A stretch of DNA of 64,000 nucleotides from Boletus sp. NGJ (lineage: Eukaryota; Basidiomycota; Agaricomycetes; Boletales; Boletaceae): assembly GCA_019096195.1 (NCBI GenBank), contig JAGTXK010000073.1, positions 806,001 to 870,000 on the forward strand. The letters are read 5' to 3'. How positions within the stretch are numbered: position 1 is the stretch's first letter; the number at the start of each line of letters is the position of its first letter. The position numbers were made by a program, and so were the translations under genes. The notes beneath the pieces are model-generated. The model was not told the DNA's origin. It did no database searches and was given only the letters and a program-made list of their open reading frames with translations. This document shows positions 49,724 through 64,000 of the stretch, piece after piece.

Positions 49724-50309
49724 GTCTCGATGTCGTTGGCGCTTTTGCTTATTTCAGTGAACGGGGAAACATCGTATGGCTGGCTGGCGGCGTTCGCAAG
49801 AGGGGGACATGCCAGTTCTACATGTGGTTTTTGAACTCACAGAAGCGAATCAAGTGACTGGAAAACACTGGGATAAACATTGACATCCTGTAACCTAGAA
49901 ACGCTCAAAGGTGGGAAACTGCCTCTGGTAGGTGGGCTTTTGGGTCTACGCGGCAGTATGTGGTAGTCACCAGTTCCACAGACTCGAAAGCAAACTCACA
50001 TCATTTAGAGCTCGAGCGCGGTCCCACCGTTCAAAATGGACGGCAACACGTTTCAAGTGGCACCACACGATCCGAGGGAAATACTGTGGCTTGACTTCCA
50101 AGGGTCTCAGATGCCTGTATCTGTGAATCAAACGGATTAGATCGCGAGCTTATTTTGGTGACGTGATGACACGGCATTTCCATAAGGGTTGTTTTGCTGA
50201 AGCGAAGGAACAATTAAGTGTACGTATACCGCCTTGGTAGGGTCAAACGAAAATGGGTATACCGCCATAAAGATGAGCTTGTGATAATAAAAACATGAGT
50301 CCGATTCCG
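49724..50309. other. Intergenic, promoter of 49723 gene and 3' flank of Sec7-PH gene
   Basis: No coding frame of note is seen. It should hold the promoter of the minus-strand gene starting at 49723. Confidence 0.4.
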
Positions 50310-53300
50310 TCAAGTTCCGTAACCAACGTCCCCAACAGCAAAAGGTTGCTCTTTCAACAAATCGTTACCTTGAAGGTGATGGGGAGACTTGCCAGCGATG
50401 GCCGACATTCGCAAGTTGGATGGTAGTTTTACCAGCGAAACGCGTTTCGCCGCTCTGGTTTTGTTCCATTCTTCGGCCTGTTCCTGTGGGAAATCGAGTG
50501 CTACGGGTAAATTTTCATGCAAGGATGTGTCTGGCAGGGATTGATTGGTAGTGGATAATGACAAATATGAGGTTTCGTCAGGGGACGGATAACAGCTCGC
50601 CGGGCTATCACATCCTTGTGTGGCAGGTGAATCGGTGGTAAGAGATGGCCCCCAAAGTGAGGGTGCAGTAAACGCTTCGCCCGATGACGGCCAATCAGGG
50701 CCAAAATCCAGCGCGGAACGGAATGTTTCATAAGTGGGTGAGTCGAGGGACTGCGAGCCCGAGAGAGAAGTCTCTTCGTGGAACGAACTCTTAGGTCTGG
50801 GTTCCTGAATTGAGAATGATGACTGCGAGGTATGCTCGGAGTGGCGCTGCTGTAACGTTTCGGTTGCAGCTTGCAAAGCGAGCGAAGTTGCTTGTTTGAA
50901 ATTCCTCTCCTCAACAGCGAGATCGTTCAGAAGAATGTTGCGATGACAAATGAGTTTGGTGACATCCAAGCGCATTGCTTGTATTTTCTTGGACATGCTC
51001 TGAATAGTATCCTGCAAACGATCTCGGGTGGATTTCTGGAATGGTGTCAAGATCCCAATATTTCTCGCGATGTGCATACTAGAATTGATTTGTGCATTGG
51101 CGGCGCAAATGCGATTCTCCAGATCTTCCACCCGAGTATGTATCATATGTGATCTGGAGGCGAGACGAGGTTCTGCCCCGACCGGGTATGCTTTCTCCGC
51201 GAGTGAGATATCTCCGGCGCTAACGCGTGCGGCGGCCAATTCTGCTTTCACTGTATCAAACGTCTCTTTGAATTGTGACGCTCCCTCGATCTCGGGTGCG
51301 GATAGATCTGCCAATTCACTCTGGCAACCATCCGTGTCCGCAGAGTACCTACAGTGCGACCCACCATAAGTAGGAGATTCATCCATCCGTTCAGAAAGGT
51401 TACTGTGACCCCACGTCAGCATTCTTGGTTGACCGGAACCCGGAAGCTGCAAGTCATGAAGGTGTGACGTAGCAGCAGCTACTCCAGTGAGCTTGAGAGC
51501 ATTTCCTGCTATTCCGAGCGGTCGCATGCGTACGCCCGTGGTTTTGAAGGTGCTCGCATAGTTAATACGGGATATCCATTCATCCATCTCTTTCCGCTCA
51601 GTTGTCTGGAGGAGAATATGACGTCCATCGCGAGTGATGAGGCGAAAAGTATTCAAGTGCTGTGGTATACACAAGTGAGGATTAGATAAATGTAGCGCGA
51701 ACGGGCTCACCTTGCTATAGGATCTGTCCAAGACTGCCAGTGCATCATCCAAGGAAATAATTTCATCAGGCTTGAATAATGTTGACGATATGGAGGGTTT
51801 CCTTGGCGGATCATTCCATGAAAGTAGTGTTGATGACCATGAGAGATCGCGGAAAAGAAGAAGCTGAGATCTCGTAAGAGCGACGCTATATGGTCGCCAC
51901 TTGCGATTCAATGGCTTTTTTCCGCCTTCCAACAGATCATCTTTGCGATTGAGTACAGCGACCTTGGTGAACTTGACGGTCCATGTCTCGGACGCAGGTA
52001 GCGCTTCAGGTACACCGCCAAGGCCGTTGAGAGACGGACTTGCATTACCCCCAACACTCAGGCCAAAGAATGGAGTCGTCGATCGCATGTCCGTTGATCC
52101 TATTTGTACCACGTGCCCCTTGGCGAAAGCCAGGAGGATCTCGTCGTAGTTCCAAGAAGTACCCGTACCATCCCATCGAAACGGGCTCTCAAGTGAAATT
52201 TGACCTTCGACGTTAACACGGAGCTGATCCAACAGATTCTAAAAACGACACCTGAGGCAAACTGATGAGAACGGTGCAAAGTACTCACATTCTTAATGAG
52301 ATAGTAGGGATCAATCTTTGGTCTGCTCAACAATGTACCCCCACTTTGCATCATTGGACTTGGAAGCCCCGATGCCGTGGAAGGTCTAGTGAGGTTTCCT
52401 TCGACACTCCCTTCGGGATCTGAGGGGTCTTCGATAAAGATGAACGGTGCAAATAGGATGTTGTCGTAGAAGCACTGGGGGACTGTCATGGATGCCCCAC
52501 TGTGATGCTGGCATGATTCTACGTACATCAAGAACTTCAGGAATCAAGCCTGGGAGCGTCGTATTCCTCAAATAATCCGCCTTGGACATCTTCCGCCTGT
52601 TTGACTTGTTGAAAGCGTCCGTGTGCAACATGATCAGACTAAATGCTAAAATGTATGGGTGATCTGAAAGGAGGATCATCGTCATCGTCATCATTGTGAA
52701 TCTGCACGTCCGGTAAATTAAGGATGGCACACCTCTAGAAGTGAATAGGTCGGGGTTACACGAAAGATATCTATTCGCGAATGCTTCCATGACTCGATCA
52801 ATTTGCTGTGTCTCCCGTGGTAGACCGATATCCATCAACAGTCTACGCAACGCAACGTCCAGGGGGTCTCCATGAAATCCAAAACGTTCGATAAATAGCT
52901 TGAGCGAATCTGTATAGATAGGTTCTCCGCTGCGGAGAGGGGTTAGAACGAACAAAGACTGCCCAGCGCAATCTTACGTCGAAGCCAGGACTCCAGCTAT
53001 TTCGGCCTTGGAGACGAGGGACACCAATCTGTCAACGAAGTTCTCGGGGTCTTCACCCACTTGGGGTTTCAGAATATAGGGTGGAATCTGTGATAGAGAA
53101 GGCCGAGGAGAGCGAGAGGCTGGAGACGACGCGAATCCATTGGAAAGCAAGGGCCTATTTTTAGTGGCCGATGATGTCGCTGAGGCGAATAAATTAACAG
53201 AAAGTCGATGAAGAAGTGGTGGGTTGGTTGAGGAACGAGGTCGGGGATTGGGTGGATCAATGTTGGATTGTGGTGTGGGATTGGCAAGGAAGGGTTCATT

Positions 53301-54413
53301 GTTTGAAGAAGGGACAGTGGAATGATGTGATAAAGCAAAGAGAGAGCGGGAACGAAAGGGAATTGCGGAATCAGCCGTAGTTGGACGACGCGTGGGTGAA
53401 CGATGTGAAGCAAGAAAACACTGATCGGCAGTCGGTGGTCGAACATTGGTCCTATCTGGAGTAACCGGGGTTTGCGGTAAACTAGGAATGTTGGTACGAG
53501 CAGTCGAAGGGTGGCGAACAGCGCGTTCTGAGTGACGCCTGGAAAGTCTTGGGCCACTGGAATTGCTATGTGATCTCACAAGCGATTCTGGAGGTTCAGT
53601 GAAGTCCACGCGGAGCGGGGAGGTGGGTTTTACTGCTGGGAGCGAGGGCGACTCGACTGGGAAAGTGAGATGTTGCGGGGATGATGTCGAAATTTTGCGT
53701 GACCAGAACGAAGATTTTCGGACCAGGGGTGTAGCGCAAGGCGAAGTTGAGGCTCGTTTCGTTGTTGAAAACATTTGTGTCATTGAGATACCTCTGGTAC
53801 GCTGTTGCTCAAGACTTGTCGAGGGCTTTTCTGGCCGCAACGAATACGTACTCTTACTCTTTCGCAGGACGTTGTCAGTGCTGCTGTTCGGAAAGGATGA
53901 AAACGCAACAGAGTTAATGTGAGAGGGAGGGGGTATCATGGGCACGTTGTGGTAGACATCCAGGTAAAAGGTGGGCTGTGGAGGAGTCTCTGTTGCATGT
54001 TGAACAGAGATAGACACCCGAGCATCGTTTAGATGGGCGCTTGGTTCATGACTAGTGATGTTTGCATCGGCCTGTGGGGATGGGCTCGGGGGAAGATCCT
54101 TCTCGAGCAGCCGTCTACATGGAGTTGTACTGCGCAGATTCGCGGTGCGTTCATCTGCATGGGGTAAACCTGCAAGGCTTTTGCGCGCTGAGGAGGACAC
54201 GGGAAATATGCGGCGTGTCCAATGTGGTAGGGAGAAGAAGTGGGGACCAGCGCCGGAGGAGTTGTCGCTGTTCTCTGGGACGGACCCAGGGCAGGTCTGC
54301 TCAGCGGGCGATGGAACCGGTTTAAGATTCGCGGTGGAACCCATAGTGCCAACGCGGGGTACAATGTCTGCTGAGGGGGGGTGTCTACTTCCCAAACCAA
54401 GGATACCGACCAT
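50310..54413 (-). CDS. Sec7-PH guanine-nucleotide exchange factor for Arf (Syt1/EFA6-like)
   Basis: Activates Arf GTPases in membrane traffic or polarity. Start MVGILGLGSRHPPSADIVPR at 54413. The first 430 residues are disordered and Ser/Pro-rich. The Sec7 domain (about 52530-52970) has DSLKLFIERFGFHGDPLDVA, DIGLPRETQQIDRVMEAFAN with the glutamic-finger Glu in LPRE, YLSCNPDLF, then DHPYILAFSLIMLHTDAFNK and MSKADYLRNT. After further introns a PH domain spans about 51560-52090: ETWTVKFTKVAVLNRKDDLL, RKWRPYSVALTRSQLLLFRD, FRLITRDGRHILLQTTERKE, EMDEWISRINYASTF. A coiled-coil segment (VEDLENRICAANAQINSS) and a Ser-rich tail follow. Sec7 followed by PH fits fungal Syt1 and Yel1; I cannot choose between them. 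Confidence 0.88.
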
Positions 54414-54589
54414 GATTGAGAGTGTAATGGTGCAGTGTGAGTACGCTCAAGCGCTCACTACCAAACCCGCTGGAGAGTCGTCGAGGAGTAAAGAAACCTG
54501 CTCGCTTAACTAAGCCATTTCATCCACGCGCCACCCCCATCTTGATCGACAGCCTTCTCCTTCTCGAACTCACTCACCACTTCTTCACG

Positions 54590-54884
54590 CAGCCATGCTC
54601 AAGTTCTTATGTTCCTAGGGTTGGCTTGCATACATAACGGCCTTTGACTGGCTGGTCACCATCCTTACTGTGATCTCTGCCCAGCCACTCGATCTCATGT
54701 CTCTAGATGTGGACCGAGATCAACAAGAAACCGGTCGACGACCACAGCAAAATGTTCGCCCTTGTCATCACGCAATATTCTGATTGCCGATAGTGGAAAC
54801 TATGTTATTCTCTAAGTACGTTTGAGGCATGCCTTGATCCTCCTGCAAGCTGACTTTCGTGCAGTTCTTCGCAACCAAGCTTGA
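54590..54884 (+). pseudogene. Decayed 3' part of SMD2 (left duplicate)
   Basis: Sequence related to SMD2 exons 2-4 at 60520-60949. It starts with CCATGCTCAAGTTCTTATG versus CCATGCTCAGGTCCTTATC, then an ATGTGGACCGAGAT exon missing several codons and the GT donor that follows KMFLR in the intact gene. Identity is patchy and several indels occur up to about 54811, after which the match becomes near perfect. The fragment lacks the 5' half and cannot encode an Sm protein. Confidence 0.7.
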
Positions 54885-55179
54885 TGCCCGTGAGACGTGG
54901 CTCTTTCTTGGCCTGCACTCACCCAACCAGCTCTCCAGCATTGTACTTGCTCGATATTCGGCTGGGTAAGAATGCAGCGGTGGGTTCAAGTGTATCGGCT
55001 GCACACTACTTTAAACATACTTCCATGCTTTTCGCGGGCTGCAGCTCGGGTCTTGTTCAACATTGTGATGCTGGTATGTAACGAACCATTGACATCCAGC
55101 TTCCCTCGCGTGGATGGAGCCCACGAATCTTGTGTCAGTCAGATCTGTTCTGTGTGACTGATACGATATGGCATTTATT

Positions 55180-55513
55180 CTACAAGGCTGTGGGAAAGAG
55201 CTGTCGAATTTCTCGGTTGGCAATCCTGAGCTGGTCCTCTATTACCACCTGGGGTTGCATGAGACGGCGTGCACTGGGAGTAAGGAGACGGGCTCACGGT
55301 GTCCGTGAGGTGCTTGTTGCGTTCGATCTCTGCGCGGAACCAGAGGAGCGTCTCTGCCCGTATGCGTGTGTCGGGAATGGCTATAATATGGTGCACGCTG
55401 TAAGCGCAGAATCCAGGGAGAGACTGTAGACTCGTACAGCGTGAAGCCCTGATGGCGAAACGGTAGAGACGGAGGATGCGCTGTTGGAGTATAAAGTGTT
55501 TGAGAGAGAGCAT
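55180..55513 (-). CDS. LYRM2: LYR-motif protein LYRM2-like, left copy
   Basis: Small mitochondrial LYR-family protein; members bind acyl carrier protein and help assemble respiratory complexes (LYRM2 is linked to complex I). Three exons: MLSLKHFILQQRILRLYRFA with the LYR tripeptide, then SIPDTRIRAETLLWFRAEIE and RNKHLTDT, then VVIEDQLRIANREIRQLFPT ending AL. The acceptor at about 55451 was chosen because it keeps the frame and the family sequence RASRSIPD. An upstream in-frame ATG would extend the N-terminus by about 30 codons. This copy is intact and encodes the same protein as the copy at 61245-61578. It sits between a decayed SMD2 piece and a truncated gene. Confidence 0.82.
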
Positions 55514-55601
55514 GGCAGTTTGAATTTCATGGCTACGCCGTGGCGACTTGTTTTGCTTCGCCCGCCAGTTCTGCCTCTGCCTTCTTTCCATCAAGCCCAC
55601 C

Positions 55602-56352
55602 ATGTCTTCATCTGATAATGTTCCTCCCCAACAATCGACCCCCGTCCTTGTCATGACCGACAGCCTCACCAATCTTGCCATCCAACCTCACGACTCTTTC
55701 TCCGTTTCTCAAGACTCGCCCCAATCCCGTCAAGATTGTCCCGACTCTGGTCCCTTCATCATGTACTCTCGCTCTCAGCTCCTCTTTCTCCACAAATCCC
55801 CATTGGTCCAACTCCCCTGCGGCATGCCAGCCCTAAAAGATTGGTTCGGGTCTGTGCTCACACCCACCTCCCCCCTTCTCCCAGCAGTCTGCTCAACATG
55901 ATCTCTAGGACTGAAAATGACCAGCCAAGTTCCAAAAAAGACTCTGAAACACCCCTTCCCGTCGGTAACCCGCGTGAAAGACGGTACGTGGACTTGTCTC
56001 CCACCTAGCTCCTCTGTTGACATTGTATGCTCAGGTTCCGCCGAGAGACGGACGATGGTGGTACTTATTTCCTTTCGCGGCGCATGCGTTCTCTGACGCC
56101 ATTCTCAAGCTTCTACGAGACAATCGTTCCGCGGCGCTGCCATTACCCAGCCTTCTCAGATGGGAAATTTCAAGCACCAGTCAATTCGTGCGGCGGACCG
56201 TGACCGGGACAGAGATGGTGAGAAAGAACAAGACCGTGAAAGGGTCAAAGAAGGTCAAGAACGACTTCGCAATGCGAGTACAGATCTCACCTGAGCCGCT
56301 TCGATGTATTAAGTGTTATCATTCCAGTTATCCGACAAGTATGACCGCGATC
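55602..56352 (+). pseudogene. Truncated 5' part of eIF4E-binding-like gene (left copy)
   Basis: Exact copy of the promoter, leader and first exons of the gene at 61667, including the YSRSQLL motif. Homology then becomes diverged (56353-56409), with one extra base that breaks the frame, and stops where prephenate dehydratase begins. It could still supply a promoter and transcript start for the downstream gene. Confidence 0.75.
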
Positions 56353-56379
56353 CACCGTGTCCTGTCATCCATATCACAA

Positions 56380-57496
56380 ATGCCAGCCAAGGACAGAGAC
56401 TTGGCTCCTAAGCCCCGGTTGGCTTTCTTGGGTCCATTTGGAACCTACTCTCACCAGGTCACTGTTCAGTTTCAATTATTCTATTGTTTGCTGATAGGCC
56501 ATACAGGCCGCGTTCGAGTGCTTTTGTGATTCTGTTGAATACCTTGCTCGGCCAACGATTGCAGGTGAGTTGTGCCAGCATGTCGATCAAGGGGAGAGCC
56601 AATCGTCGTCAGATGTCCAGCAAACGTTGTCGGCTGCTGTGCCATTTGGGGTAATCCCTCACGAAAATAGCATATATGGTTCAGTTGTTGAAACTTATAA
56701 CATCTTGCGTATCCCCGTGGTTGGCCAAGAAATTTTTGTGCGGGGTGTCATTGTTTTTGAAGTGCAGCACTCTCTGGTTATCCGACAGGGGGTGAAATTG
56801 GAGAACATCGAGAATGTATTGAGTCATGAGCAAGTATGTGCCTGTGATGAAACCATCAGTGGAGTCCATTTCATGATGGTTTGTTTAGGCTTTGGGACAG
56901 TGCCGGGGGTGGTTGGCTGAACACTTGCCTCAAGCATCTTTAATGCCCACAGATTCTACTGCAATTGCAGCAAAAAGACTGCTGTCTGCCAAAGATGGAC
57001 TGGACCCAATGAAATGTGGAGCAATATGTTCATCAGTGGTTGTCACTATTCACAAGGGATTAGAAATTTTGGAAGAAAATATCCAGGATAGAACAGGCCA
57101 GTGGTTTGTCCTAAATGTTCTGGACACAACTGATCTTCCACAGAAAACTTCACTCGCTTTTACATCATTTCACATGGCCTAGATGTAGCTCTTCCAGAGG
57201 AATGTTCTCTATCAACAGAGAACATGGCTTTGCTGCGGTTTCAGGCTCCTCTTGGTAACCCAGTGAAGCCAATGTTGAACCTTCCCAGTGCAATCAGCAC
57301 ACTTGATATTATCATACTACGAATTGACAGGCGCCCATCATTCCATGGTAGACCATTTGATGATGTCTACTTTCTTGAAGTTGGTGCCATTCCAGGACAA
57401 ACCAACCTTGAACAATCATGGACAAAGCAGCTAGAGCAGGGAGTCGACAAGGTAAGGTGCATGGGTGTGGAGGTGTCAGTATTAGGATGCTGGTAG
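56380..57496 (+). CDS. PHA2: Prephenate dehydratase, start codon in duplicated sequence
   Basis: Converts prephenate to phenylpyruvate in phenylalanine synthesis. The frame begins MPAKDRDLAPKPRLAFLGPF; its first ten or so codons (56380-56409) derive from the neighbouring duplicated gene, where the matching bases read ATACGA instead of ATGCCA. The catalytic domain continues GTYSHQ / AAFECFCDSVEYLARP across an intron (56458-56509), then FGVIPHENSIYGSVVETYN, LENIENVLSHEQ / ALGQCRGWLAEHL, PTDSTAIAAKRLL, and IQDRTGQNFTRFYIISHG with the TRF motif across an intron. An ACT-type regulatory domain follows (ALLRFQAPL, SAISTLDIIILRIDRRP, DDVYFLEVG), ending SVLGCW, the usual LGxW C-terminus. It appears intact. 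Composition is AT-richer and T-ending codons are more common than in neighbours. Confidence 0.85.
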
Positions 57497-58189
57497 ATGT
57501 AAAATTTCTCATTTGATTTTATGGACATATCAGAATGTGGAATGATAATGAGCCTTTTAAATGTGTCAGTCAAGCATTGGAATTAAGCTACAATTGTCAA
57601 AGACTCATGGATAGCCAGCATATATGTATGTGGATATACTGTAGGAAATGAATATCATTTGCATGAATGGAAGTGGTGATTCTTAATGAACTTACAAATA
57701 CAAGACCTCATTCCAAACTCTGATTTGGACGATGGGATGTGCCTGGAATAATGCCAGTCTGTTTGATTAGAAATATGGTCCTTTTGATGTAAGGCACAAA
57801 GTTGACTGTGAAATGGCCTGGGCAGCTGTGTGTGCCTCCCAAAATTGTTAATGACCTCAATAGCTACAATGAAGATGAACCTAATGAGAAGGTGTGTTTC
57901 TGAGGGCTGATCTCCACCTCATCCCTTGAAAGTGCCTTTTTAATGATGTAAACTGCAAGAAGTGACAGCTGTACATACTAAAGCCATCACAGGCGACGTG
58001 GTCTTACAGCTATACCGCTTTTCGCTGGGGCTCACTACCGAACCCAAAGGAGAGATGTTGAGCACACGTGCGGAACATTGAGTATCGCGAGCGTACAGCT
58101 GGTCGCAGCAGTGCTAAATTTAAGCAGCTTAACATCTAAGTCATGGAGTAACTGTATACAGCTTGCTGTCAATATCAATCACGTCCACC
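57497..58189. other. AT-rich flank between PHA2 and NOP7
   Basis: Visibly AT-richer than the rest of the window up to about 57990, where composition returns to normal. One plus-strand stretch near 57799-57904 reads KLTVKWPGQLCVPPKIVNDL and on for a few codons, possibly a leftover of another gene, but no family is recognised. The region holds the 3' ends of two convergent genes. Confidence 0.45.
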
Positions 58190-60216
58190 TCAGTTTCGGC
58201 CTTTAATCTCTCTGCGTCTGCTCAGCAAAGTTTCGCGCTGCTCATGGGTCAGAAAATGAGATGCAGTGAATTCACCCAGACGAACCTCTGCCGCGCGTCT
58301 CCTTTCTCCGTGCTTCATTCGCTCGTAGAGTTTCCGCTTCTTGTTACTCAGCAGCATCTTACCCATGTCCACCTCGCTTTGATCGTCAGGCTGCACCTTC
58401 TGAGCTCGCTTCCTCTGCAATCTCCGCACCTCCTTCTCGAATGTGCCGTATTCCATTCCCGCCGCCTCAGCTGCCAGTTCTGCAGCACGCAGAGACTCTG
58501 CGTCGTCAGCATTGCTGATGCTCACGGTCTCAACAACCTCGCCAACACCCTCTTCTTTCTCATTTCGCTCCGAGGCTCGTTCATACTCGCTGTCGGGTAC
58601 CTCCTCCGCCGACGCTTCCTCTAAGTGGGACAGGCTCACAGTCGGATCGTAGGCTCCTGGTTTATCACCAAACGGAGATAAATGAGGGGGGAGTGTGGCA
58701 CCTTGCACATAGAGACCCTCAAGAAGGATCTTTCCTGCATTAATGCAGTCCACAACCCATTGCGGTTGGACATATTTCCGTCTTCGCTGCCGTTCTTTCT
58801 CCTCTGTCGACCCACTGGTCTTAGCGATCACGGGTCGGTCGATGATGACATGAGTGATCGAATCGTCTGATTCTGTGATGGGAGATCCACTCCCAGATGA
58901 TGACGACCAACCAACTCGACCACCAAACGACCTTATCAAGAATTCGAAAACGGGTCGGGATGTTTCGCGCGACAGGAAGAATGTATACGGAGAAAATAAG
59001 GACGTAGGTGCAGAATTGCGCGCCTCGGATAATGACTGCAGTGTAGGCAGCGATGCCGTTGCATCCGCACCAATAGAGGAGTGGAGGACGAACACTTCGT
59101 CGACTTCAGTGGGTACCGCAGTGAAATCCCTGGAGTCGACGTCAACATCTTCATTGACAGGTGATGGATCTGCAGTTATGGTTTTGATGGCTTGTCGAAC
59201 CTCCTTTGTCGAAGCGATTTTTCCAGCATTTTCGCGTTTTGGGATAGATACGATATTCTCCGCTATCTGGACACTGAATGCACCTAGTCCAGCACCTGCT
59301 TCATCTCGAGTGGTGTCCAAGGGAGGTGGATAGACAAGCCCGGCGTCCGTGAAGAGCTTGAAAAACACGAAGCCGAGCAGTGTTTGATAGAGTTCCAAGA
59401 ATGTCAACATTACTCGGACATCAACGTCTGACGGTACCTGCAAACAGGTTCTTAGCATGCCAGACAGTGTGAAACGAAGCAGAGGCGCTACATTCTGCGT
59501 AAACTGATAGGGTACGAGCCAAGTGACATCCTGATCCATGACTTCCACCTGGTAATATATTCCTTTGATGGAGAGGAAGACCTTCCTGAGCGAACGCGAA
59601 TGCATGACGTAGAGTTGCCATTCTGCAGCCAGACGAGAACAATTGGCGATCAACGACGGTGACACACGATCGTTGGAGGGTAGCGAGGCAAAGAGAAATA
59701 TCATGCAAAGCGCGTCATCGATATCTCGTACGGCGTCGATGAAGGTGGGGTATCTGATGATCGTTTGAGTCGCTCATGCTAAAATGGTAGAGGAACGCAT
59801 TATACCTCTCCTTTATGATGTGATCAAGTCGGTAAGTTGGTCTGCTGTCCTCCAGGTTCTTCGCGATACTCCATTCTCCACGGCCAAGAGCTCTGGAAAT
59901 TTTTTTTGCGAACGCCTTGTGTTCTCTCAGCTTGTTCAGCACTGGCTCATGAGCAAGATATGCGATGTCCTTAGTGTAGTAAAAAGACGTTGGGGCCGTC
60001 GACCCTTTGTTGGCTTTCTTTCTGCTTCGCGGCTCACGCGGAAATATGCCTGTTCTGCGTTATGGCTGGAGGCGAGACACGACCAAGCCACGTACCTTTG
60101 AGGATGCACAACCGCCGGAAGTCGGCCAAGGAACACTGTAATTTCTTGACCGCGGCTGACCGGGTCATGTAGGCCTTGGCTGCTCCAGCCTTGCCCTTTT
60201 GTTTTAAACGGCCCAT
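58190..60216 (-). CDS. NOP7: Pescadillo homologue, 60S ribosome assembly factor
   Basis: Subunit of the PeBoW (Nop7-Erb1-Ytm1) complex needed for 27S pre-rRNA processing in the nucleolus. Start [20 protein letters not shown] at 60216. Exon 1 ends FRRLCILK and, after an intron (about 60036-60095), [18 protein letters not shown]-type sequence and [20 protein letters not shown] follow. The Pescadillo domain continues [40 protein letters not shown] and [14 protein letters not shown]. The single BRCT domain contains [37 protein letters not shown] and [17 protein letters not shown]. The acidic then basic C-terminus has [20 protein letters not shown]. Three exons; length about 620 aa, normal for the family. 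Confidence 0.94.
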
Positions 60217-60354
60217 GTGTGCCCGCTCTAGTTTTCCGCGACGGGCAGAGTTTGTTGAGGTGAAGAGCGATATCGGGTTTGTTTGTGCAGCGTCAACACA
60301 CCCTCGAGCACCATCACCACCACCACCACCACCACCACCACCACTATCGCAAGC
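60217..60354. promoter_or_regulatory. 138-bp shared promoter NOP7 / SMD2 with CAC repeat
   Basis: Divergent gap between the two start codons. It contains about ten CAC units (60315-60344), ending 11 bp before the SMD2 start codon, so the tract is probably in the SMD2 leader. Confidence 0.6.
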
Positions 60355-60949
60355 ATGAGGTGAGCGGGACTGATGGTCCTTGAAACGTTGTACTTAGTGC
60401 TCGCATGTCAGTCAGTATGTTCATGTCCCTAAATCTGAGCTAGACGAGGCTCAGCTACGCCAGCTGGAGGAGCATGAGATCAGCCAGGGTCCCTTGTCGG
60501 TTTTGCAACAGGCCGTTCGCAACCATGCTCAGGTCCTTATCTCCCTCCGGAATAACAAAAAGTTGCTTGCACGCGTAAAGGCATTTGACCGACACAGCAA
60601 TATGGTTGGTCCCCCGTCTCATCCTTACTCGATCTGACCTTTGATCTCTTCCAGGTGCTCGAGAACGTAAAAGAGGCAAGATCGCTCGGTCTCATCTCAT
60701 ACTATTTCATTGACTACTTCTCTAGATGTGGACTGAGATACCAAAGGGTAAGAATAAGAAACCGGTCAACAAGGACCGGTTCATTAGCAAAATGTTCCTG
60801 CGGTATGTCTTCGTCCTTGTCGTCATGCAATATTCTGATTGCCGATAGTGGGGACTCTGTTATTCACTCTGTTATTCTAAGTACGTTTGAGGCATGCCTT
60901 GATCCTCCTGCAAGCTGACTTTCGTGCAGTTCTTCGCAACCAAGCTTGA
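60355..60949 (+). CDS. SMD2: Core spliceosomal Sm protein D2
   Basis: Member of the heptameric Sm ring on U1, U2, U4 and U5 snRNAs. Exon 1 is ATGAG; an intron (about 60360-60411) leads to [20 protein letters not shown]. The Sm1 motif is [38 protein letters not shown], then VLENVKE. The next intron (60676-60725) begins with GC instead of GT, as family conservation ([11 protein letters not shown]) requires. [19 protein letters not shown] follows, then the Sm2 motif. A tandem 12-bp duplication (60854-60877) puts four extra residues into Sm2, giving [16 protein letters not shown], where other SmD2 proteins have no HSVI. The last exon is TTCTTCGCAACCAAGCTTGA. A decayed copy lies at 54590. Confidence 0.9.
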
Positions 60950-62417
60950 TGCCCGTGAGACGTGGCTCTTTCTTGGCCTGCACTCACCCAACCAGCTCTC
61001 CAGCATTGTACTTGCTCGATATTCGGCTGGGTAAGAATGCAGCGGTGGGTTCAAGTGTATCGGCTGCACACTACTTTAAACATACTTCCATGCTTTTCGC
61101 GGGCTGCAGCTCGGGTCTTGTTCAACATTGTGATGCTGGTATGTAACGAACCATTGACGTCCAGCTTCCCTCGCGTGGATGGAGCCCACGAATCTTGTGT
61201 CAGTCAGATCTGTTCTGTGTGACTGATACGATATGGCATTTATTCTACAAGGCTGTGGGAAAGAGCTGTCGAATTTCTCGGTTGGCAATCCTGAGCTGGT
61301 CCTCTATTACCACCTGGGGTTGCATGAGACGGCGTGCACTGGGAGTAAGGAGACGGGCTCACGGTGTCCGTGAGGTGCTTGTTGCGTTCGATCTCTGCGC
61401 GGAACCAGAGGAGCGTCTCTGCCCGTATGCGTGTGTCGGGAATGGCTATAATATGGTGCACGCTGTAAGCGCAGAATCCAGGGAGAGACTGTAGACTCGT
61501 ACAGCGTGAAGCCCTGATGGCGAAACGGTAGAGACGGAGGATGCGCTGTTGGAGTATAAAGTGTTTGAGAGAGAGCATGGCAGTTTGAATTTCATGGCTA
61601 CGCCGTGGCGACTTGTTTTGCTTCGCCCGCCAGTTCTGCCTCTGCCTTCTTTCCATCAAGCCCACCATGTCTTCATCTGATAATGTTCCTCCCCAACAAT
61701 CGACCCCCGTCCTTGTCATGACCGACAGCCTCACCAATCTTGCCATCCAACCTCACGACTCTTTCTCCGTTTCTCAAGACTCGCCCCAATCCCGTCAAGA
61801 TTGTCCCGACTCTGGTCCCTTCATCATGTACTCTCGCTCTCAGCTCCTCTTTCTCCACAAATCCCCATTGGTCCAACTCCCCTGCGGCATGCCAGCCCTA
61901 AAAGATTGGTTCGGGTCTGTGCTCACACCCACCTCCCCCCTTCTCCCAGCAGTCTGCTCAACATGATCTCTAGGACTGAAAATGACCAGCCAAGTTCCAA
62001 AAAAGACTCTGAAACACCCCTTCCCGTCGGTAACCCGCGTGAAAGACGGTACGTGGACTTGTCTCCCACCTAGCTCCTCTGTTGACATTGTATGCTCAGG
62101 TTCCGCCGAGAGACGGACGATGGTGGTACTTATTTCCTTTCGCGGCGCATGCGTTCTCTGACGCCATTCTCAAGCTTCTACGAGACAATCGTTCCGCGGC
62201 GCTGCCATTACCCAGCCTTCTCAGATGGGAAATTTCAAGCACCAGTCAATTCGTGCGGCGGACCGTGACCGGGACAGAGATGGTGAGAAAGAACAAGACC
62301 GTGAAAGGGTCAAAGAAGGTCAAGAACGACTTCGCAATGCGAGTACAGATCTCACCTGAGCCGCTTCGATGTATTAAGTGTTATCATTCCAGTTATCCGA
62401 CAAGTATGACCGCGATC
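60877..62417. repeat. Segmental duplication, right copy (near-identical core)
   Basis: Partner of 54812-56352. Here the flanking genes SMD2 and the eIF4E-binding-like gene are complete, so this is the original locus and the left copy is derived. Confidence 0.9.
61245..61578 (-). CDS. LYRM2: LYR-motif protein LYRM2-like, right copy
   Basis: Same gene structure and identical protein as the left copy at 55180-55513: three exons, LYR in RILRLYRFAIRASR, then PDTRIRAETLLWFRAEI, and IEDQLRIANREIRQ. It sits in its likely ancestral place between SMD2 (tail to tail) and the eIF4E-binding-like gene (head to head, start codons 88 bp apart). LYRM2-type proteins are about 90-100 aa; this one is about 80-85 aa from the chosen start. 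Confidence 0.85.
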
Positions 62418-64000
62418 GTCGTGCCCTGTCGTCCATGTCGCAAATACGAGCCAAGGACAGAGAGTTGGCTCCTCATCTCCCTAATCCTTCCTCAAGGGTC
62501 GCTGCCCAAGGACACCAAACAGCTTCGTCACGTGTCAGTGACTCCCGGGACGCTCAAAGGAAGAAAGACGGGGAATCCAATGAAGATTGGCGCAGAGGTG
62601 TGTATCATCAAAAAAATTTTGTTGCACGCCACAAGAGTGACCGGCTTCGTCATGGCAGGCGCGGATCAACCCCGAACAGGCAGAGACCGTACGCACTATA
62701 GTGGTGTTCTCGATTATACGCTCACTTTTTTCGACCAGGACCAGAGAATGGTCGCAGGGACCGTGATGATCGCGAACGGCCACGCTCCAGGGTGCGAGAT
62801 TCCTCCCGGTCTCGCCGTGAAGGGTCCCCTTCCAGACGTGAGAAAGAGGATCGGCGAATGGACCGTGATGATGGATATAATTACCGGAGGGATAGAGACG
62901 ACCGAGACAGGGATTTCGAACGTGACTCCGAGCTCGAAGACCCCAGGCGATGGAGAGATGATGGGAAGAGAGATGAACGTATGGCTGCTAGGCGCGAACG
63001 AGAACTACGAGAACGCCGTGACCGACCTACGTGGGATGGAGGCGACCGCTCTGACAGACGCTGGGTTGCTGGAGATGATCGGGACAGTCGAGGAAAGAGA
63101 TCCAGTGGCAGAGATAGGAAGCCTGGTGATGATGGTAAAGACCGTGATGACCGCAAAGACCGCGAGCGAGAGAAAGAGCCTGCTTGGATGGATACTTACA
63201 TCCCAAGCAATGGCAGTGGTGGAGTTATTGGTGGCCATCGTTCTGGTGGAGAACTTGATGGTATCCAGGCGTTTAGAAAGGAAATGCAGCAGAAAGACAA
63301 AACTAACTCACCAGTGGTTTCCAGTCTCGCATTGTCACAAACCCAAGCTTCGTTCCCTGGTCAAGCTCCAGAAAACCAGCTAGACGAGATCCAGCTCTTC
63401 CGTCTGATGATGAAGAGAGAAGAGGAGAAGAAATCAGATTCCCCTATGGTCCCCCATGCAGTTCATCCTTGCAGTGAGAGTCTCTCTACAAGTCTCCACG
63501 ATGAGGAATCACAAGGTGCGCTGCAAATGGTTGGTGGATTCATTCACATTTATCGTGGTAACAGTTCGAGCGTCTGTGGAGGTCGGCTCAAATTTGACAC
63601 TTACACCTGCATTGTCGAGCGAGGATGTTTCTCGTGTGTCAACGCTTGGCGAACAGCATGAAGATCCTGTTAGCGTCAGTGTGACTACGGATTCTCCAGC
63701 GCCGATTGCGTCCAGCTCTTCTCCACAAACCTCTGCATCACTGGCTTTCAGCGGTCAAGAATCCGAACCCTCCGATAAATTGGCCCCGCAGAGTTCGCGA
63801 CTATTCTCAAGTACAGTCTCGTCCGAGCAGTCTGTAACAGCGAAACCACCTATTGACGCGGTGATTTCTGTGAACCAAGCTCCTCAATCTCACCCTCCCG
63901 GTGGATCTCGACTACTTGCGCTGGGGTCGCGGAATCCCCAAAATGCAGTTGCTTCATCTGTACGCTCGAGCTCCTCCCAAAGTCCAGCGTCGTTCGTCCA
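61667..64000 (+). CDS. Probable eIF4E-binding / 4E-T-like protein (runs off right edge)
   Basis: Start MSSSDNVPPQQSTPVLVMTD. At residues 55-61, YSRSQLL fits the YxxxxL-phi motif that binds eIF4E; HKSPLVQLPCGMPALKDWFG follows. After several introns come QPSQMGNFKHQSIRAADRDR, KEGQERLRNA, then LSDKYDRDRRALSSMSQIRA. A long region rich in Arg-Asp and Arg-Glu (about 62790-63175) leads to EPAWMDTYIPSNGSGG, GELDGIQAFRKEMQQK and LDEIQLFRLMMKREEEKK. Beyond one more intron the frame continues with PPGGSRLLALGSRNPQ to the window edge. Such proteins repress translation or target mRNAs to P-bodies; that role is inferred from the motif order. Some introns between 62095 and 62380 are not resolved. Confidence 0.65.

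What the first reader, a model, noticed from the sequence alone, without database searches (positions are those of the whole stretch)
56353..57496. Prephenate dehydratase gene with a borrowed start and perhaps a borrowed promoter
The PHA2 frame opens at an ATG (56380) that lies inside the diverged edge of the duplicated eIF4E-binding-like gene. The equivalent bases in the right copy read ATACGA, so the start codon arose by substitution. The first ten or so codons (PAKDRDLAP) are former coding sequence of the other gene, in the same frame. The complete upstream region and first exons of the donor gene sit just ahead and could drive transcription. This looks like a new chimeric gene formed by duplication.
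Basis: partly seen in the sequence, partly recalled or inferred. Interest (0 to 1): 0.75.

Follow-up and report, generated by a model that had tools for sequence, protein, structure and literature searches.

The report
Enzyme gene with a borrowed start
In a bolete mushroom, the only detected gene for a phenylalanine-making enzyme appears to have lost its own beginning and to start instead inside a partly copied neighbouring gene, a clear small example of how duplications splice genes together.

Summary
A segment of about 1.8 kb (about 54584-56409), copied from 60.5-62.5 kb, abuts the prephenate dehydratase gene (PHA2, 56380-57496). Its first 10 codons (MPAKDRDLAP) come from the duplicated eIF4E-binding-like gene ("4EBP", label recalled), in its frame. 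Close homologues start like MSISSNPEKPRL; 0 of 120 listed carry the borrowed motif. It is the only PDT match found in the genome. The next Met is codon 138, so a full-length enzyme needs a start in the copy. The protein looks functional: 0 of 71 columns invariant in 28 homologues are changed. In its CpG-depleted part, 2 of 98 possible synonymous CpGs remain, but 7 of 12 Arg codons keep CGN.

Corrections: (1) the ATG probably did not arise by substitution; 7 of 16 4EBP homologues have Met there, and parsimony (6 against 7 changes) makes the right copy's ATA derived. (2) A 1-bp insertion (56352) breaks the 4EBP frame. A message from the copied promoter would first encode a 198-aa 4EBP fragment stopping at the junction, so simple promoter capture is doubtful. 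(3) The copies differ at 1 of 1541 bp in the middle but are diverged at the edges: old duplication, recent gene conversion. A known kind of event, in an unusual place.

The parts
54584..56409 (+). left (partial) copy: 3' part of an SmD2-like gene (label recalled), intergenic region, 5' part of the 4EBP-like gene; left limit approximate
   Evidence: BLAST part 54755-56409
54811..56351 (+). tract identical to 60876-62416 except one base (55094 A / 61159 G); probable gene-conversion tract
54584..54810 (+). diverged left edge (decayed SmD2-like exons, gaps against the right copy)
   Evidence: 33 differences in 225 aligned columns, 141 gap columns in L
55490..55496 (+). TATAAAG in the copied 4EBP upstream region, 112 nt before its ATG (not shown to be a promoter element)
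55602..56411 (+). truncated 4EBP ORF, exons 55602-55849, 55909-55983, 56035-56060, 56110-56273, 56328-56411; 198 aa, stop TAA made at the junction; overlaps the PHA2 start by 32 nt
56352..56352 (+). 1-bp insertion relative to the right copy (place approximate); shifts the 4EBP frame
56215..56217 (+). upstream in-frame ATG, alternative PHA2 start
56341..56343 (+). upstream in-frame ATG (A at -3), alternative PHA2 start
56380..56409 (+). borrowed codons 1-10 of PHA2 (MPAKDRDLAP), homologous and in frame with 4EBP
56380..56457 (+). PHA2 exon 1 (junction 56409/56410)
56507..56564 (+). PHA2 exon 2
56613..56833 (+). PHA2 exon 3
   Evidence: the intron before it (56565-56612) seems retained in the annotated Lanmaoa homologue P0001
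56889..57096 (+). PHA2 exon 4; followed by a GC-AG intron 57097-57143
   Evidence: restores the conserved ENFTRFY
57144..57496 (+). PHA2 exon 5 with conserved C-terminal region
56741..57993 (.). CpG-depleted patch over most of PHA2 exons 3-5 and the 3' flank (limits approximate)
60511..62473 (+). right copy of the duplicated segment, inside SmD2-like and 4EBP-like genes; left limit approximate
61667..64000 (+). complete 4EBP-like gene of the right copy (starts 61667, ends near 65.5 kb outside the window)
58190..59704 (-). PES1/pescadillo ORF between the two copies (part of the gene)
   Evidence: PF06732 E 1.7e-47, PF00533

Best explanation
A piece of chromosome holding the 3' end of an SmD2-like gene and the 5' end of a 4EBP-like gene was duplicated and now lies directly against the gene for prephenate dehydratase, whose own first dozen or so codons and start are gone. 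The breakpoint fused the 4EBP reading frame to PHA2 at codon 10/11, and an old internal Met codon of 4EBP now serves as the start codon of the only prephenate dehydratase gene found (shown: fusion, an N-terminus unlike that of homologues, no other PDT match, no later Met before codon 138; inferred: use of that ATG or of the in-frame ATG at 56341). The enzyme stays under purifying selection. The 5' tail of PDT varies between species, so the swap was probably neutral for the enzyme and mattered because it gave back a start. Transcription most likely begins inside the copied segment; whether at the copied 4EBP promoter or at a secondary start nearer 56.2-56.35 kb is undecided. The two copies later exchanged sequence by gene conversion, which kept 1.54 kb identical while the edges, including the new start, drifted.
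For: Repeat anatomy. Other N-termini in 17 of 17 aligned homologues; borrowed motif in 0 of 120 listed. The only PF00800 matches in the genome are this gene's exons (2 candidates, 2 scored); the repeat was found elsewhere only as the right copy and a 181-bp fragment. Met positions in PHA2: 1, 138, 160, 216, 232, 295. Function: PF00800 E 2.3e-45 (on the version with intron 2 retained); 0 of 71 columns invariant in 28 homologues changed; private changes against Lanmaoa not significantly raised (chi2 0.4-3.1 with 5 outgroups). In codons 81-305, synonymous CpG 2 of 98 against 73 of 272 in PES1 (p 3e-9), but CGN Arg codons 7 of 12 against 28 of 39 (p 0.48); 0.66 would be expected at the same depletion, P(>=7) 6e-6. 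An open frame of 918 coding bases (the splice model was chosen with homologues in view) beside a left edge with 141 gap columns against a right-copy stretch of 366 bases. Edge against middle divergence 45/289 against 1/1541, p 1.6e-36. Met ancestral at the start codon.
Against: No transcript data. ATG 56380 has C at -3, a weak context by recalled rules, and 56341 has A there. Divergence does not fall significantly at 56380 (7/28 before, 3/30 after, p 0.17). The window copy has 9 changes at 138 columns invariant in nine close homologues, the second highest of ten, so some relaxation is possible. The coding model needs a GC-AG intron. The Met-ancestral inference rests on one parsimony step, and Met and Ile also alternate among the homologues. 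The selection signal is not dated to after the duplication.
Confidence: 0.75

Rival explanations
1. PHA2 came to the copy, not the copy to PHA2: PHA2 moved within its chromosome and broke into an already duplicated 4EBP fragment. The product is the same chimeric gene.
For: PDT is thus tied to this block less tightly than its members to each other. The CpG-depleted patch covers most of PHA2 and its 3' flank only.
Against: PDT shares a contig with 4EBP or PES1 in 7 of the 8 Boletaceae and Paxillaceae-type species with data (grouping recalled; the exception is Imleria badia), which fits an ancestral place on the same chromosome; moving a gene and fusing it in frame needs more steps. Adjacency itself was not seen in any relative.
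Confidence: 0.3
2. The true start lies in a native first exon upstream of the copy, near 54414-54583, spliced across it to an AG at 56411-56412 (AAG|CCC); the borrowed codons are intronic.
For: An AG precedes CCCCGG at the junction; 54414-54583 lies between a divergent gene and the copy and could hold old promoter sequence.
Against: No exon resembling MSISSNPE seen by eye in 54405-54600 (one search printed it; no search program was used). Such an intron would be about 1.8-2 kb, against 47-55 nt for the four introns of this gene model. Odds raised from 0.10 to 0.12 on checking, because an argument from predicted homologue proteins was dropped: spliced predictions say nothing about introns.
Confidence: 0.12
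3. PHA2 lost its promoter and is a decaying pseudogene.
For: CpG-depleted like other blocks of this contig; 9 changes at otherwise invariant columns in the ten-sequence set; no Butyriboletus PDT among the 120 listed homologues.
Against: Open 918-base frame, 0 of 71 invariant columns changed, CGN kept at conserved Arg codons; only PDT match in the genome.
Confidence: 0.07
4. Assembly error at the repeat.
For: The 1541-bp tract has a single mismatch, as a collapsed or copied repeat would.
Against: The diverged right edge that carries the start matched only itself and the diverged right copy in the genome search, so it cannot be mis-joined right-copy sequence; the contig is 1.74 Mb.
Confidence: 0.04

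Closest known systems
Chimeric genes from partial segmental duplication / exon shuffling (Drosophila yakuba, PMC5460883, abstract and list of sections seen; review PMC3449122, passages seen)
   Same: A duplicated 5' gene segment is put in front of another gene and shuffles regulatory and coding sequence.
   Different: Here the re-headed gene is the only copy found of a core biosynthetic gene, not an extra duplicate, and only ten codons plus the start are borrowed.
Fungal prephenate dehydratase PHA2 (PF00800)
   Same: Whole PDT domain and C-terminal region; 75-77% identity to Lanmaoa asiatica.
   Different: N-terminal ten residues come from another gene.
Methylation-type CpG to TpG decay described for fungal transposable elements (PMC4352252, passages seen)
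   Same: Loss of CpG in a patch.
   Different: Falls on a single-copy, apparently selected gene rather than on a recognised transposon; methylation itself not measured.

Membership tests
Prephenate dehydratase (PF00800) | PDT domain above the curated cut-off | tested here: met
   155 bits against cut-off 25.2 (version with intron 2 retained)
Prephenate dehydratase (PF00800) | conserved residues including the TRF motif (motif recalled) and SHEQALGQC | tested here: met
   0 of 71 invariant columns changed; N-F-T-R-F present with the GC-AG intron model
Prephenate dehydratase (PF00800) | enzyme activity | not testable with these tools
   needs an assay
Chimeric gene formed by duplication | coding sequence from two separate sources joined in one ORF | tested here: met
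Chimeric gene formed by duplication | donor gene persists elsewhere | tested here: met
   right copy 60511-62473 within a complete gene
Chimeric gene formed by duplication | chimeric structure absent from outgroups | tested here: met
   borrowed motif in 0 of 120 listed homologue proteins; no nucleotide neighbourhoods of relatives were available
Promoter capture | transcription from the copied promoter | not testable with these tools
   no RNA data; upstream ORFs argue for caution

The most novel reading that the evidence does not exclude
The only prephenate dehydratase of this fungus is made from an overlapping two-ORF message started at the copied 4EBP promoter: a 198-aa fragment with the eIF4E-binding motif (recalled) is read first and its stop codon lies 29 nt past the PHA2 ATG, so phenylalanine synthesis would be coupled to translational control. 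A fused protein read in the other frame (open from 55917, 408 aa) is also possible, though that frame is open in the right copy as well.
Probability: 0.07. Interest if true: 0.7.

Novelty: new member of a known kind. Interest (0 to 1): 0.42.

Why it matters
It is a readable case of a sole metabolic gene losing its own start and being rescued by a neighbour's internal Met codon. It suggests that the new start was already there, in frame, before the break. It gives a concrete locus at which promoter replacement, gene conversion and CpG decay with selection can be tested together.

Tried and rejected
Start codon made by substitution: rejected as the less likely order after the 4EBP homologues. 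Divergence step at the ATG as proof of translation start: not significant. The within-gene Fisher test of Arg CpG against other CpG (p 8e-7) is not used, because PES1 shows a high Arg CGN share too; the comparison with PES1 is used instead. The first PHA2 splice model with a GT-AG last intron gave stops and was replaced by a GC-AG model. The 4EBP exon 3/4 boundary was off by one; its ORF and ATG figures are replaced. Skipping exon 2, 3 or 4 does not put the 4EBP ATG in the PHA2 frame. The open alternative frame ahead of PHA2 was set aside because it is open for 367 aa in the right copy. CpG changes at the left edge are about symmetric between the copies; only the right edge leans towards loss in the left copy (4 of 5 right-copy CpGs absent), too few to build on. 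Rfam (50000-64000) and tRNA (whole window) scans found nothing. Paper searches listed nothing that I recognised as about this locus; I looked at the titles and abstract starts listed, and opened only the three papers named.

Full report
What is there. The window is 64 kb of contig C81 (1.74 Mb) of a 32.8-Mb genome. Protein matches point to the Boletaceae: the pescadillo ORF is 93% identical to Butyriboletus roseoflavus and 79% to Lanmaoa asiatica, and the dehydratase is 77% identical to Lanmaoa. The order is: a gene on the minus strand (ORFs to 54413; Sec7/PH-like by my reading, but Pfam found no family in 52974-54413), the left copy, PHA2 (+), PES1 (-), an SmD2-like gene (+, label recalled), and the 4EBP-like gene (+).

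The duplication. The left copy spans about 54584-56409 and corresponds to about 60511-62473. The middle 1541 bp differ at one base. The outer parts differ at 45 of 289 aligned bases (7 of these bases lie past the junction), and the left edge has 141 gap columns against the right copy. The contrast has p 1.6e-36. An old duplication followed by gene conversion of the middle explains this best; a repeat copied by the assembler would explain the middle only. The genome search found no other full copy of the repeat; a 181-bp fragment at 85% identity lies on contig C83.

The fusion. PHA2 is modelled with five exons: 56380-56457, 56507-56564, 56613-56833, 56889-57096 and 57144-57496, coding for 305 aa. 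The last intron has a GC donor (CAG|GCCAGT), and with it the conserved ENFTRFY is restored. The 4EBP gene also appears to use a GC donor at AAT|GCGAGT, since 15 of 16 aligned homologues read LRN or LRH directly followed by LSDK or LSEK (the exception, P0123, has five residues in between). Codons 1-10 align with 4EBP and codons 11 onward with PDT. The 17 aligned homologues have other N-termini; the closest six resemble MSISSNPEKPRL. A pattern search of the first 60 residues of the 120 listed homologues found none with the borrowed motif (one search matched 345). The genome search with PF00800 found only the exons of this gene. The next Met in PHA2 is codon 138, so a full-length enzyme must start in the copied DNA, at 56380 or at an upstream in-frame ATG (56341, 56215; also 56055 and 55917 in a spliced message).

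Origin of the start codon. At the codon that is ATG in the left copy and ATA in the right, 16 homologues have Met 7, Leu 5, Ile 3 and Phe 1. On a tree of the first 600 alignment columns, rooted on one Suillus sequence, the ancestor of the two copies costs 6 changes if Met and 7 if Ile, with or without the left copy. Three codons earlier the left copy reads Ile, as do 5 of 16 homologues (4 of them Boletaceae, grouping recalled); 8 have Leu, one each Gly and Val; the right copy's Met is shared with one Suillus. The left edge thus looks older in state at both sites, and the start codon was most likely an internal Met of 4EBP before the break.

Is PHA2 alive? PF00800 scores 155 bits. 0 of 71 columns invariant in 28 homologues is changed. 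Against Lanmaoa the window copy has more private changes with each of five outgroups (34/25, 34/21, 32/23, 35/25, 22/18), but no difference reaches significance. In a narrower set of ten, it differs at 9 of 138 columns that are invariant in the others, second to P0010 with 10 of 139. Most of exons 3-5 and the 3' flank lie in a CpG-depleted patch (o/e 0.14-0.24 in 250-bp steps from 56750 to 57999). In 20 samples of 10 kb from the same contig the 1-kb values are bimodal, with a median of 0.90 and 46 of 200 at or below 0.45; apart from the PHA2 patch the lowest 1-kb value in the window is 0.73. In codons 81-305 synonymous CpG stands at 2 of 98 possible sites against 73 of 272 in PES1, but CGN at Arg codons at 7 of 12 against 28 of 39. 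If Arg codons had been depleted alike, 0.66 CGN would be expected; P(>=7) is 6e-6. Of the seven, six lie at columns that are Arg in 18 of 18 rows and one at a column that is Arg in 14 of 18. This is what selection on the protein in a C-to-T-prone stretch would leave, though it does not date the selection to after the duplication. The open frame beside an edge with many gaps argues for selection afterwards as well (inference).

Expression. The copied upstream region has TATAAAG at 55490, 112 nt before the 4EBP ATG. The extra base at 56352 puts the 4EBP exons out of frame with PHA2. A message spliced like 4EBP would encode 198 aa, of which the first 179 equal the right copy's protein, and stop at TAA 56409-56411, which the junction creates. 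Ten ATGs, that of 4EBP included, precede 56380 in its coding part. PHA2 would thus be an overlapping second ORF. I therefore favour a start within the copied segment but leave open whether it is the copied promoter; RNA is decisive.

Which piece moved. Using contig length as a fingerprint, PDT and 4EBP share a contig in 8 of 15 Boletales, PDT and PES1 in 11 of 18, and 4EBP and PES1 in 9 of 10 (10 of 11 with Pisolithus sp. B1, recounted). In 7 of the 8 Boletaceae and Paxillaceae-type species with data PDT is on the contig of 4EBP or PES1, but adjacency is not shown in any.

Verdict. It is a member of a known kind of event (PMC5460883, abstract seen; PMC3449122, passages seen), notable because it re-heads the only gene found for a core step.

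Noticed in passing
56741-57993: Sharp CpG-depleted patch on most of PHA2 exons 3-5 and the 3' flank in an otherwise CpG-normal window; the first 300 bp of PHA2 are normal.
   Followed up: partly
55602-56411: Left copy keeps an intact 198-aa N-terminal 4EBP fragment with the eIF4E-binding motif (recalled); it could act as a small translational repressor (inference).
   Followed up: partly
L005 1501-1681 (G000:C83:8920-9100): A third, 181-bp, 85% fragment of 4EBP exons 3-4 on a 16.8-kb contig; nothing else in the 9.9 kb read around it matches the window.
   Followed up: partly
54811-56351 / 60876-62416: One mismatch in 1541 bp between otherwise diverged copies: recent gene conversion or assembler copying.
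   Followed up: partly
57097-57143 and 56274-56327 (also 62339-62392): Apparent GC-AG introns in PHA2 and in both 4EBP copies, supported by homologue alignments.
   Followed up: yes
54452-54484 and 58030-58062: Short similar stretches GCTCACTACC(A/G)AACCC...GAGAG on the two sides of the PHA2 segment, seen by eye; not listed by the window self-comparison.
   Followed up: no
Butyriboletus roseoflavus has a listed PES1 (93%) but no PDT or 4EBP among the best 120 listed in each search; missing annotation or odd-length models are possible.
   Followed up: no
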